This document shows, piece by piece, positions 11,570 through 59,814 of a stretch of DNA of 64,000 nt. Source of the stretch: Nitrospira sp. (GTDB taxonomy: Bacteria; Nitrospirota; Nitrospiria; Nitrospirales; Nitrospiraceae); assembly GCA_018242685.1 (NCBI GenBank), contig JAFEBM010000015.1, forward strand, positions 1 to 64,000, read 5' to 3'. The position numbers and the translations under genes were made by a program. Under the pieces are notes generated by a model, which saw only the letters and a list, made by a program, of their open reading frames with translations, was not told the origin of the DNA and ran no database searches. The first letter of the stretch is position 1, and the number at the start of each line of letters is the position of its first letter.

Positions 11570-14500
11570 TTGGTATCTGATCAATACAAAGACATGGTCA
11601 CGCTCGTCGATCTCGCTCGCCGAAGGGCTGCAAGCCTTGCTGATCGATCGGCGTACATATTTTTGACCGACGGAGATTCGGAGACCTTCGAGTTGACGTA
11701 TGGCGAATTGGATCGTCGGGCGCGCGCCATTGCCGCACGGCTTCAATCATTGGGTGCCGGAGGGGAGCGGGCGATTCTTCTCTATCCGCCTGGTCTGGAC
11801 TATATCGCGGCATTCTTCGGTTGCTTGTACGCGGAGGTTGTCGCCGTACCGGCCTATCCTCCACAGCGGAAACGGCCGCTGGGAAGATTGCGCGCTGTCC
11901 TTGCAGATTCAGGAGTGGCTTTTGCCCTAACGACGACGAAAATCCATGCGAGCATCGACCAGTTTCTCTGCCACGATTCCGGAATGCACGAATTCAAGAA
12001 GGTACAGTGGCTTGAAACGGATGCCGCGTCCGAAGATATCGAGAACGCTTGGACAATGCCCGCATTGAAGGGACGGACGCTCGCCTTTCTCCAATATACC
12101 TCCGGTTCGACCGGATCTCCGAAAGGAGTCATGGTCAGCCATGAGAATCTGTTGCACAACCAACGCATGATTCAGCAGGCGTTCGGCCACAACGAAGAGA
12201 CGACGGTTCTTGGATGGCTTCCGCTCTATCACGATATGGGACTGATCGGAAATGTTCTTCAGCCGCTCTATCTCAGTAGACCTTGTGTGCTGATGTCACC
12301 CGTGCACTTCATGCAGAAACCGTTTCGGTGGTTGTCCGCCATTTCCCGGTATCGCGCCACGACCAGCGGCGCGCCGAATTTCGCTTATGACCTCTGTGTG
12401 CGCCAGATTTCATCGGAAGAACGAGATTCGTTGGATCTAAGCTCATGGTCGGTGGCTTTCAACGGGGCTGAACCGATTCACGCAAGGACACTGGATCGAT
12501 TCTCTGAAACGTTCGGTCCCTGCGGGTTCAGGCGTGAAGCCTTTTATCCCTGTTATGGATTGGCCGAAGCGACGTTGTTCGTGGCCGGAGGTGAGCAATG
12601 CGCATCGCCGGTTCTCAGGGCCGTCGAGAAGGCTGCAATGGAACGCGGACGGATGATCGGGTCATCGCGAGGTGATGACAATGTTCATCGGTTGGTCGGA
12701 TGTGGCCGAACCGCATCTGATCAACAGGTGGTCATTGTCAATCCGGAGACTCTTACGCAGTGCCCTCACGGTCAGGTTGGTGAAATCTGGATCAAAGGCG
12801 CGAGCGTGGCACAGGGCTATTGGAATCGCGCGGAGACCACAGCGCTCACATTCATGGCGATGACGGCGGATACGGCAGAAGGTCCGTTTCTTCGGACCGG
12901 CGATCTGGGAGTGATCCAGGACGACGAATTGTTCGTGGTCGGGAGACTGAAAGATCTGATCATTATCCGCGGGCGAAACCATTATCCGCAGGACATTGAA
13001 ATAACGGTACAGGAAAGCCATCCTTCTCTCAAGCCAGGCTGCGGCGTAGCTTTCTCCGTCCCGGTCAACGATGAGGAACGCTTAGTTGTGGTGCAGGAAG
13101 TTGTCGGCAGGTCCAGCGTTGATCTTGACTCTGTTGCGTCAGGAATCAATCGGGCAGTCACGGAGCATCACGAAGTTCAAGTGCATGCCGTCGTCCTGAT
13201 CAAGCCAGGGACTCTTCCCAAGACGTCGAGCGGAAAAGTTCAACGGCATTTGTGTCGGACAAAATATCTTGCGCAAGAACTAGAAGCAATTGAAACGTTT
13301 CGGGACAAGAGGGTGGAATGCCCGACCGGTAGCGCAACCGAGGATGCCGACGATGGTGTGATTACAACGGTGGCCGGTATCTGGGCTCAGGTACTTGATC
13401 GAACTTGTATAGGTCCTCATGACAATTTTTTTGAACTGGGAGGAGATTCGCTGCGTGGCACGCAAGTACTGACGAGAGTACAAGCAGCCTACGCGGTCGA
13501 TCTTCCTCTTGAATCTCTGTTCGACGCGCCGACTGTTGTTGGCCTTGCGGCGTTGATCAAATCGGGATGTCGATCGACTCTGTCCCTGTCGCGAAAGACA
13601 CTGGAATCGGCAAGGCGGAATGATGTCATGCCTCTGTCTTTTTCGCAGGAACGATTCTGGTTCCTGGATCAACTGTCGCCTGGCAACTCATTCAACAATA
13701 TCCCGGTCGCCTTGAGAATCAAGGGAGCACTCGATCGTAAGTCGCTTCACCGCGCTCTGGCTGAAATCGTCCGCCGCCACGAAATCCTTCGCGCGCGATT
13801 CGTGGTCTGTGACGGCCACCCCGGTCAGGTTATCGCTCGGCATCTTGATCTGGCTCTCCCAATTGAGGATCTCACAGATATGTCAGGACCGGCTCAGGAA
13901 GAACAGGTCGGACTGTTGGCATTGAAGGAGGCTCGGCAATCGTTTGATCTGACGACTGGACCCTTGATTCGAGTGCGGCTCCTTCGGCTGAGTCAAACAG
14001 AGCATGTGTTGTTGCTCACGATCCACCACATCGTCGCCGACGGCTGGTCCATGCGCCTCCTTGCCCAGGAACTGGTGCAGCTGTATGAGACCTTCAAAAA
14101 CGGGCTTGATTCCCCTCTGCCCATTTTATCGAAACAGTACTTGGATACGGTCTTCCATCAGCGTGAATGTGTGGACAGTCACGAATGGAAACGGCAAGAG
14201 CGCTATTGGCGCCGGCAGCTGGAATCTGTACCACATGTGCTCGCGCTGCCGTTCGATTGTCCGCGTCCCGCTGTGCAATGCCAGAGAGGCGACCGGTATG
14301 CATGGGTTGTGGACAGGGAACTCGGGAGGCGGCTGTACGAGGTCGGTTGCAGGCAACAGGCGTCACTGTTCATGACCGTTCTAGCTTCGTTCAACGTGCT
14401 CTTGGCCCGCTACAGCGGGCAGTCTGAATTTTGTGTCGGCACACCTGCGGCTAATCGATCGCAGCCGGAACGTGAGTCGATTATCGGCTGCTTCGTCAAC

Positions 14501-59814: not shown

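What the first reader, a model, noticed from the sequence alone, without database searches (positions are those of the whole stretch)
11570..59814. Predicted new acyl hybrid siderophore rich in Dab with two beta-hydroxyaspartates
Colinear reading gives fatty acid - X1 - reduced C2 unit - Dab - Ser - Dab - D-Dab - Asp - Dab - Asp - X2. Four Dab residues make the product strongly cationic, like polymyxin-type lipopeptides, while two hydroxylases suggest hydroxyaspartate iron ligands. I know no siderophore with this order. Codes were read by eye against the GrsA positions.
Basis: partly seen in the sequence, partly recalled or inferred. Interest (0 to 1): 0.78.

Follow-up and report, generated by a model that had tools for sequence, protein, structure and literature searches.

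The report
Nitrospira lipopeptide siderophore gene cluster
The DNA encodes an assembly line that probably makes a previously uncharacterised, positively charged iron-grabbing lipopeptide in Nitrospira, a nitrifying bacterium, and relatives carry recognisable variants of it.

Summary
Six open megasynthase genes at 11570-59814 read FAAL-T-C-A1-T | KS-AT-KR-ACP | C-A2-T-C-A3-T | C-A4-T-C-A5-T-E | C-A6-T-C-A7-T-C-TauD | interface-A8-T-C-A9-T-TE, plus a free TauD. New here: (1) the host is Nitrospira; (2) X1 and X2 are most likely Arg; (3) 10 of 12 clusters read in the order share the scheme, with swaps at positions 5, 7, 8 and 9; (4) fused hydroxylase plus HHxxxDG-less 'interface' C domain matches cyanochelin B; (5) a conserved Ntn acylase means the mature product may not be acylated; (6) three C domains group with post-epimerase ones although no epimerase precedes them. 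The siderophore role is inferred from receptors, regulators, two OHAsp modules and an apparent Asp-to-His swap. A review states that Nitrospira makes siderophores (passages); none of the passages I saw gives a structure. New variant of a known kind.

The parts
442..1734 (+). PepSY_TM protein, possible ferric-siderophore reductase
   Evidence: Pfam PF03929; reductase role recalled for FpvG-like proteins, inferred
1932..4406 (+). TonB-dependent siderophore receptor 1
   Evidence: TIGR01783 371.9 bits, cut-off 223.5
4422..5537 (+). second PepSY_TM protein
   Evidence: PF03929
7568..8164 (+). ECF sigma factor
   Evidence: PF08281/PF04542; TIGR02937 78.9 bits, cut-off 42.9
8195..8518 (+). short FecR-like protein (DUF4880)
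   Evidence: PF16220
8722..11328 (+). TonB-dependent siderophore receptor 2, with STN signalling domain
   Evidence: PF07660, PF07715, PF00593; TIGR01783 363 bits, cut-off 223.5
11570..16945 (+). NRPS 1: FAAL-T-C-A1(Arg-like)-T; start codon uncertain
16947..21545 (+). PKS: KS-AT(malonyl-type)-KR-ACP; no methyltransferase, DH or ER match in Pfam
21559..23226 (+). cyclic-peptide-export type ABC transporter (PvdE-like)
   Evidence: TIGR01194 508.2 bits, cut-off 286.2
23302..24708 (+). diaminobutyrate-2-oxoglutarate transaminase (makes Dab)
   Evidence: NF005393 784 bits, cut-off 671; TIGR00709 555.6, cut-off 401.6
24705..27134 (+). penicillin-acylase-family Ntn hydrolase, candidate deacylase; nucleophile Ser260 (GSN)
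   Evidence: PF01804; PDB beta chains align from Ser260; far below the PvdQ cut-off of NF051460
27394..28161 (+). type II thioesterase, GHSIG
   Evidence: PF00975, motif
28204..29244 (+). free-standing TauD, presumed Asp beta-hydroxylase, assigned to module 6
   Evidence: PF02668; HNE and AHGR motifs; 51.8% identity to the free-standing enzyme of the cyanochelin B plasmid
29109..35822 (+). NRPS 2: C-A2(Dab)-T-C-A3(Ser)-T; start codon uncertain
35831..43702 (+). NRPS 3: C-A4(Dab)-T-C-A5(Dab)-T-E
43715..52609 (+). NRPS 4: C-A6(Asp)-T-C-A7(Dab)-T-C-TauD
51650..52609 (+). NRPS-fused TauD, presumed Asp beta-hydroxylase, assigned to module 8
   Evidence: PF02668; 60.7% identity to the cyanochelin B fused hydroxylase
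52615..59814 (+). NRPS 5: interface-type C-A8(Asp)-T-C-A9(Arg-like)-T-TE
52645..53970 (+). degenerate interface-type C domain (LPAMCADA where HHxxxDG is expected)
   Evidence: alignment; clades with cyanochelin B domains at the same place
60235..61305 (+). HlyD/CusB-type membrane fusion protein
   Evidence: PF16576
61361..64000 (+). RND exporter subunit, runs past the window end
   Evidence: PF00873

Best explanation
A Nitrospira siderophore cluster. Shown from sequence: gene and domain order, codes, catalytic motifs, conservation in relatives. Inferred: a fatty acid activated by FAAL acylates Arg; the PKS adds one malonyl unit and reduces it, giving a statine-like 4-amino-7-guanidino-3-hydroxyheptanoyl unit; the line adds Dab-Ser-Dab-D-Dab-OHAsp-Dab-OHAsp-Arg and TE releases it. 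The free TauD hydroxylates the Asp on T6. The TauD fused to NRPS 4, docking on the HHxxxDG-less interface domain of NRPS 5, hydroxylates the Asp on T8. Dab comes from the cluster's transaminase. The ABC exporter moves the lipopeptide to the periplasm, where the Ntn acylase may cut off the fatty acid; the HlyD/RND pump exports it, the two OHAsp bind Fe(III), and the TonB receptors with ECF/FecR signalling bring it back. Predicted linear de-acylated acid C41H77N19O18, [M+H]+ 1124.577; with C12:0 acyl 1306.744.
For: Domains and motifs. Dab: A2's code equals PvdL's at the nine read positions (printed alignment), PvdL is its core's best PDB match, and a Dab transaminase is in the cluster; the four Dab domains share 51-55% identity with each other against 33-44% with the other five. 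Arg: A9 matches the Arg-only ApnA code DVEDIGAIEK at 7 of 9 and A1 at 6 of 9 read positions; ApnA A1 is the best single-domain PDB match of both and of A9's core. In six sister clusters a methyltransferase domain sits inside A1; G113's, the one searched, is closest to guanidinoacetate methyltransferase, and G113 has the window's A1 code. Control: cyanochelin B codes fit its published order at 7 of 7, with the same C-TauD | C-without-HHxxxDG-A(Asp) junction. Siderophore context: two TIGR01783 receptors and a TIGR01194 exporter over cut-off, ECF and DUF4880; ECF-FecR-TonB order upstream in G011, G017, G027, G006. Position 8 reads His-like, with a different, separate TauD, in G011 and G017.
Against: No product has been seen. 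Two OHAsp give four donor atoms; no hydroxamate or catechol gene was recognised in the cluster. The genome's four PF13434 hits are partial (about 70-107 of 339 positions) and at the cut-off (20.7-22.4 against 21.3 bits), of a kind that also rings in 12 of 14 control genomes, so the last two donors are unexplained. No Fur-box-like site stood out from shuffles. beta-OHAsp also occurs in non-siderophores such as turnercyclamycin (passage). Arg rests on indirect evidence; ApnA-like domains also take Tyr or Lys. Pfam and NCBIfam do not call the sister insert a guanidino methylase. The published hydroxylase profiles were not available; NCBIfam gave no match over cut-off for either TauD.
Confidence: 0.76

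Rival explanations
1. A cationic antimicrobial lipopeptide of polymyxin or turnercyclamycin type, in which OHAsp is structural and iron is irrelevant.
For: Four Dab and two predicted Arg make the product strongly basic; turnercyclamycin, which has OHAsp, was a false positive of metallophore profiles (passage).
Against: Two TonB siderophore receptors, ECF and FecR genes, with ECF-FecR-TonB next to the synthetases in G011, G017, G027 and G006; two hydroxylases for two Asp modules; an interface-type junction as in cyanochelin B.
Confidence: 0.1
2. A metallophore for another metal, or a signalling molecule sensed by the STN receptor.
For: No Fur box found; only four obvious donor atoms; delftibactin A, an OHAsp peptide, interacts with gold (passage).
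Against: TIGR01783 siderophore receptors and the known use of OHAsp for Fe(III); no direct test.
Confidence: 0.1
3. Compatible with the best explanation, not an alternative to it: maturation as in pyoverdine, with the fatty acid present only on the intracellular precursor and removed in the periplasm.
For: FAAL start, PvdE-like exporter, Dab transaminase, type II TE and an Ntn acylase in one cluster, the acylase-transaminase-TE block being kept in 25 sampled genomes.
Against: The acylase scores 55.7 against a cut-off of 950 for PvdQ and is nearest to a D-succinylase in the PDB; delftibactins C-F keep their fatty acids (passages).
Confidence: 0.35

Closest known systems
Cyanochelin B (Leptolyngbya sp. 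NIES-3755, AP017310.1)
   Same: FAAL/PKS/NRPS hybrid with two OHAsp; one NRPS-fused and one free-standing TauD hydroxylase; the fused TauD ends one protein and a C domain without HHxxxDG opens the next Asp module (passages); fused hydroxylases 60.7% identical.
   Different: Thiazoline-Phe-Gly-OHAsp-Ser-OHAsp-ethanolamine, no Dab or Arg; its free-standing hydroxylase is followed by an interface domain too, ours is not; a TD domain is in its published scheme (legend).
Corrugatin / ornicorrugatin / histicorrugatin (Pseudomonas)
   Same: Acylated peptide siderophores (passage); from recall with OHAsp, OHHis, Dab and Ser; histicorrugatin is listed with a FAAL and C8:0 (table passage).
   Different: No PKS extension or Arg head group as far as I recall; sequences were not compared here.
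Delftibactins (Delftia)
   Same: FAAL-NRPS-PKS start with a statine-like unit, OHAsp by free-standing hydroxylase, GGDSI carrier domains, D residues assigned through dual C domains (passages).
   Different: Methylated 4-amino-3-hydroxy-2-methylpentanoic unit, N-hydroxyornithine ligands, other residues (passages).
Azospirillum oryzae plasmid cluster (NZ_CP054618.1, uncharacterised)
   Same: TauD | C-A(Asp)-T-C-A(Dab)-T-C-TauD | interface-A(Asp): the same OHAsp-Dab-OHAsp core.
   Different: An ornithine/lysine oxygenase gene is annotated beside it and the other residues differ.

Membership tests
beta-OHAsp NRP metallophore cluster | NRPS with Asp-specific A domains | tested here: met
   A6 and A8 carry the DLTK.GH.G code that sits at both OHAsp positions of cyanochelin B
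beta-OHAsp NRP metallophore cluster | siderophore-clade Fe(II)/2OG Asp beta-hydroxylase | tested here: inconclusive
   Two TauD proteins with intact motifs, 60.7% and 51.8% identical to cyanochelin B enzymes; published clade profiles not available, NCBIfam uninformative
beta-OHAsp NRP metallophore cluster | interface-type C domain next to the OHAsp module | tested here: met
   C10 lacks HHxxxDG and clades with cyanochelin B domains; only module 8 has one, module 6 has none
beta-OHAsp NRP metallophore cluster | siderophore uptake receptor in the cluster | tested here: met
   Two TIGR01783 receptors over cut-off
beta-OHAsp NRP metallophore cluster | Fe(III) binding and iron-regulated production | not testable with these tools
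   No chemistry; Fur-box scan negative
pyoverdine | FAAL then Glu-Tyr-Dab chromophore precursor (recalled) | tested here: not met
   A1 Arg-like, then PKS, then Dab-Ser
pyoverdine | PvdQ acylase | tested here: not met
   NF051460 55.7 bits, cut-off 950
pyoverdine | PvdP/PvdO chromophore enzymes | not tested
   The genome was not searched for them
polymyxin-type lipopeptides | Dab-rich peptide without iron-ligand tailoring or siderophore uptake genes (recalled) | tested here: not met
   TauD hydroxylases and TonB receptors present
cyanochelins | fused plus free-standing hydroxylase with two Asp modules | tested here: met
cyanochelins | same peptide order as cyanochelin B | tested here: not met

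The most novel reading that the evidence does not exclude
Nitrospira and relatives carry a lineage-specific, recombining family of cationic Arg-statine siderophores whose iron-binding residue 8 is swapped between OHAsp and OHHis together with its hydroxylase and interface domain. The family is matured by its own non-PvdQ Ntn acylase, has D residues made without the expected epimerase domains, and in sister lineages has an Arg head group methylated on its guanidine by a GAMT-like domain inserted into a split A domain.
Probability: 0.4. Interest if true: 0.72.

Novelty: new variant of a known kind. Interest (0 to 1): 0.55.

Why it matters
A review says that Nitrospira nitrite oxidisers produce siderophores and that ammonia oxidisers such as Nitrosomonas europaea presumably use them (passages); another paper cites complementary siderophore biosynthesis and receptor genes in the two groups (passages). 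The passages I saw give no structure. A genome survey counted 16 NRP-metallophore regions in 15 of 307 Nitrospirota genomes (passage), and an activated-sludge survey found NRPS and NRPS-PKS clusters in Nitrospira but does not use the word siderophore. A concrete structure with masses makes the iron-sharing idea testable, and the natural variants form a series for studying module and hydroxylase exchange.

Tried and rejected
Tried: PvdQ orthology of the acylase (my first guess), rejected; the best PDB match is a D-succinylase at 223 bits, so deacylation is a hypothesis. Fur-box scan of six intergenic regions: none stood out (best 13 of 19 letters, reached by 11.5% of shuffles). amoA family search to decide comammox: uninformative, since no control genome rang either. 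PF13434 for a hydroxamate pathway: partial hits at the cut-off elsewhere in the genome, of a kind seen in 12 of 14 control genomes. NCBIfam did not place the hydroxylases. Acylase relatives in Methylomonas: my models found nothing else of the cluster in the 22-kb loci L025 and L026, nor in L024, which has only 6.2 kb. Five plasmid clusters were compared: J. lividum, E. terrae, Methylomagnum and cyanochelin B have other orders, A. oryzae shares the OHAsp-Dab-OHAsp core. Left out of the C-domain tree: J. lividum, the minus-strand NRPS of A. oryzae, G004 and G245 (partial clusters), and C45.

Against my stereochemistry reading: one domain of the post-E clade (G003 c7) follows an ordinary GGHSL carrier without E, A. 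oryzae c2 there follows GGDSI without E, and Methylomagnum c3 follows GGDSI but groups with the other C domains; so neither sign alone is decisive.

Left unexplained: the fifth and sixth iron donors; which enzyme would epimerise the residues before C3, C4 and C8.

Full report
Host. The window is G000:C6:1-64000 of a 4.2-Mb, 78-contig genome. G222 and G366 match JAFEBI010000011.1 and CABVRR010000032.1, also titled Nitrospira, by hit coordinates. So the genus is Nitrospira.

Architecture. Searches give, all on the + strand: PepSY_TM, TonB receptor, PepSY_TM; ECF sigma, DUF4880, STN-TonB receptor; FAAL-T-C-A1-T; KS-AT-KR-ACP; PvdE-type ABC; Dab transaminase; penicillin-acylase-family protein; type II TE; TauD; C-A2-T-C-A3-T; C-A4-T-C-A5-T-E; C-A6-T-C-A7-T-C-TauD; interface-A8-T-C-A9-T-TE; HlyD; RND.

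Codes. Nine positions were read by alignment (the tenth was appended, not read). A2, A4 and A7 are DIWELTADD and A5 DIWELTVDD; PvdL, the best PDB match of A2's core, shows the same nine letters in the printed alignment. PvdL belongs to pyoverdine synthesis, whose scheme includes L-Dab (passages); that the matched PvdL domain loads Dab is recalled. A3 DVWHISLID reads Ser, A6 and A8 DLTK.GHIG read Asp. Control: the same script on the cyanochelin B cluster gives seven codes read as Cys, Phe, Gly, Asp, Ser, Asp, Gly, which fit the published thiazoline-Phe-Gly-OHAsp-Ser-OHAsp-ethanolamine at 7 of 7 (passages). The Cys and Phe codes are recalled, and that Gly gives ethanolamine is inferred.

X1 and X2. 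A9 (DVEGIGAIT) shares 7 of 9 and A1 (DVENIGSIT) 6 of 9 letters with ApnA genotype a (DVEDIGAIEK), which makes only the Arg form; other genotypes add Tyr or Lys (table passage). ApnA A1 is the best PDB match of A9's core and the best single-domain match of A1 and A9 (LgrA ranks higher there, two domains being summed). Indirect support comes from six sister clusters (G113, G055, G003, G245, G194, G190). There the ORF goes on for about 290 residues past the A1 core and ends, and the A subdomain plus carrier follow on an overlapping ORF. The added parts are 76-86% identical to G113's. I searched only G113's in the PDB: the four sequences matched are all guanidinoacetate N-methyltransferases, best 2.7e-27 over about 167 residues, sharing LEVGFGM, IIECN and DTYP stretches (that the Asp of DTYP is catalytic is recalled). 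Pfam has no match for the insert of G113 and G055, and NCBIfam gives only other methyltransferases far below cut-off for these two and nothing for G003. A guanidine methylase inside A1 makes most sense if A1 loads Arg. G113 has the window's A1 code exactly. The window has no such insert.

Conservation and variants. The acylase was found in 26 of 395 Nitrospirota genomes drawn evenly. G106 is a 28% match with no locus fetched. The other 25, own genome included, all have a Dab transaminase and type II TE beside the acylase (7, 18; in G274 the transaminase match is short and weak). They lie in the own family and, for G055 and G274, in another family of the order. Full or nearly full clusters were read in 12 genomes: window, G011, G017, G027, G006, G055, G003 (G003 is cut by the end of the fetched stretch) and G113, G198, G194, G232, G190. 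G004 ends with its contig and G245's reading stops after module 2 and a C domain within the fetched 60 kb. Ten of the 12 share the window's scheme; G003 and G190 differ strongly. All ten start Arg-like, PKS, Dab, Ser (A2 varies by one letter in G011, G017 and G006). Position 5 is Dab, Ser or Arg-like; position 7 Dab or Gly; position 8 Asp in eight and a His-like code (DSALIAEVW; His recalled) in G011 and G017; position 9 Dab, Ser or Arg-like (window and G113). G055 lacks module 9; G198 lacks what would be modules 4 and 5. In G011 and G017 the fused TauD is replaced by a separate TauD gene, and their interface domains group with cyanochelin B's rather than with the other nitrifier ones: module 8 seems exchanged as a block. 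This Asp/His exchange with its hydroxylase is hard to explain unless the residue is a metal ligand.

Hydroxylases and interface. In cyanochelin B the fused hydroxylase precedes the module for OHAsp-4 and is assigned L-threo, the free-standing one D-threo (passages). In potashchelins the fused domain is assigned L-threo and the free-standing enzyme L-erythro, though the paper's introduction says the reverse (passages). The window's fused TauD has the same position and is 60.7% identical to cyanochelin B's. The first domain of NRPS 5 has LPAMCADA in place of HHxxxDG and falls in a clade of such domains, cyanochelin B's included, at 0.99 local support in a FastTree of C domains from 12 clusters of the order and 4 reference clusters. 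The free-standing TauD is left for module 6, which has no interface domain, unlike cyanochelin B. The published definition of interface domains (Reitz 2019) was not held; I use the term from recall.

Stereochemistry. In the same tree window C3, C4 and C8 (labelled c3, c4, c7 there) lie inside the clade that holds every C domain following an E domain, near G003 and G190 domains that do follow E, yet each here follows a GGDSI carrier without E. Delftibactin workers assigned D residues through dual C domains and note GGDSI carriers both before E and with the hydroxylase DelD (passages). So Dab2, Ser3 and OHAsp6 may be D as well as Dab5. Exceptions in the tree are given under Tried and rejected. 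C4 and C8 have HHILLDE and HHILTDD. No epimerising enzyme was identified for them.

Maturation. The acylase keeps the Ntn Ser (GSN, Ser260) and is conserved, so removal of the fatty acid is plausible, as recalled for pyoverdine. It is not PvdQ by the NCBIfam cut-off. Delftibactins C-F keep their fatty acids (passages), so both outcomes are open.

Literature. Of 13 papers I saw passages only. Ten searches were made; some lists were capped (for example 15 of 687). No listed title or shown start of an abstract reports a Nitrospira siderophore structure. A review states that Nitrospira nitrite oxidisers produce siderophores and marks biosynthesis in N. inopinata as controversial (passages); so siderophore production by Nitrospira is not a new idea, the predicted structure and its variants are.

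Noticed in passing
L068:11190-12374 (G113); also L036, L040, L076, L081, L086: A methyltransferase domain (G113's closest to guanidinoacetate methyltransferase in the PDB) is inserted in the A1 domain of six sister clusters; the ORF ends right after it and the A subdomain plus carrier domain continue on an overlapping second ORF, i.e. a split A domain.
   Followed up: partly
L084:13154-14938 (G232): Here the methyltransferase part is missing, with only short end pieces left, but the A domain is still split in two ORFs, as if the insert was lost after the split.
   Followed up: partly
L066:341-9628 (G000:C45): A second lipopeptide synthetase in the same genome: FAAL-T-C-A-T-C-A-T-TE, codes DGTVVAEVW and DILQLGMIW (the second Gly-like); product unknown.
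   Followed up: partly
G017 A5: Module 5 of G017 carries an A1-type (Arg-like) domain, 84% identical to window A1, where its closest relatives have Dab: looks like domain replacement by recombination.
   Followed up: no
G055 A3 and A5: Both are Ser-type with the same code and the same identity (62%) to window A3; they may be duplicates, but were not compared with each other.
   Followed up: no
L076-L078 (G245): In this single-contig genome my models find the cluster only up to module 2 and one C domain in the fetched 60 kb: a possibly truncated cluster.
   Followed up: no
window 5538-7567: A 2-kb stretch between the PepSY gene and the ECF gene without a recognised gene; one 105-aa ORF (5683-6000) has no Pfam match.
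   Followed up: partly
NZ_AP019784.1 (L094): A Methylomagnum plasmid cluster also has an annotated penicillin acylase family gene beside FAAL-NRPS and TauD genes, hinting that this acylase logic is not unique to Nitrospira.
   Followed up: partly
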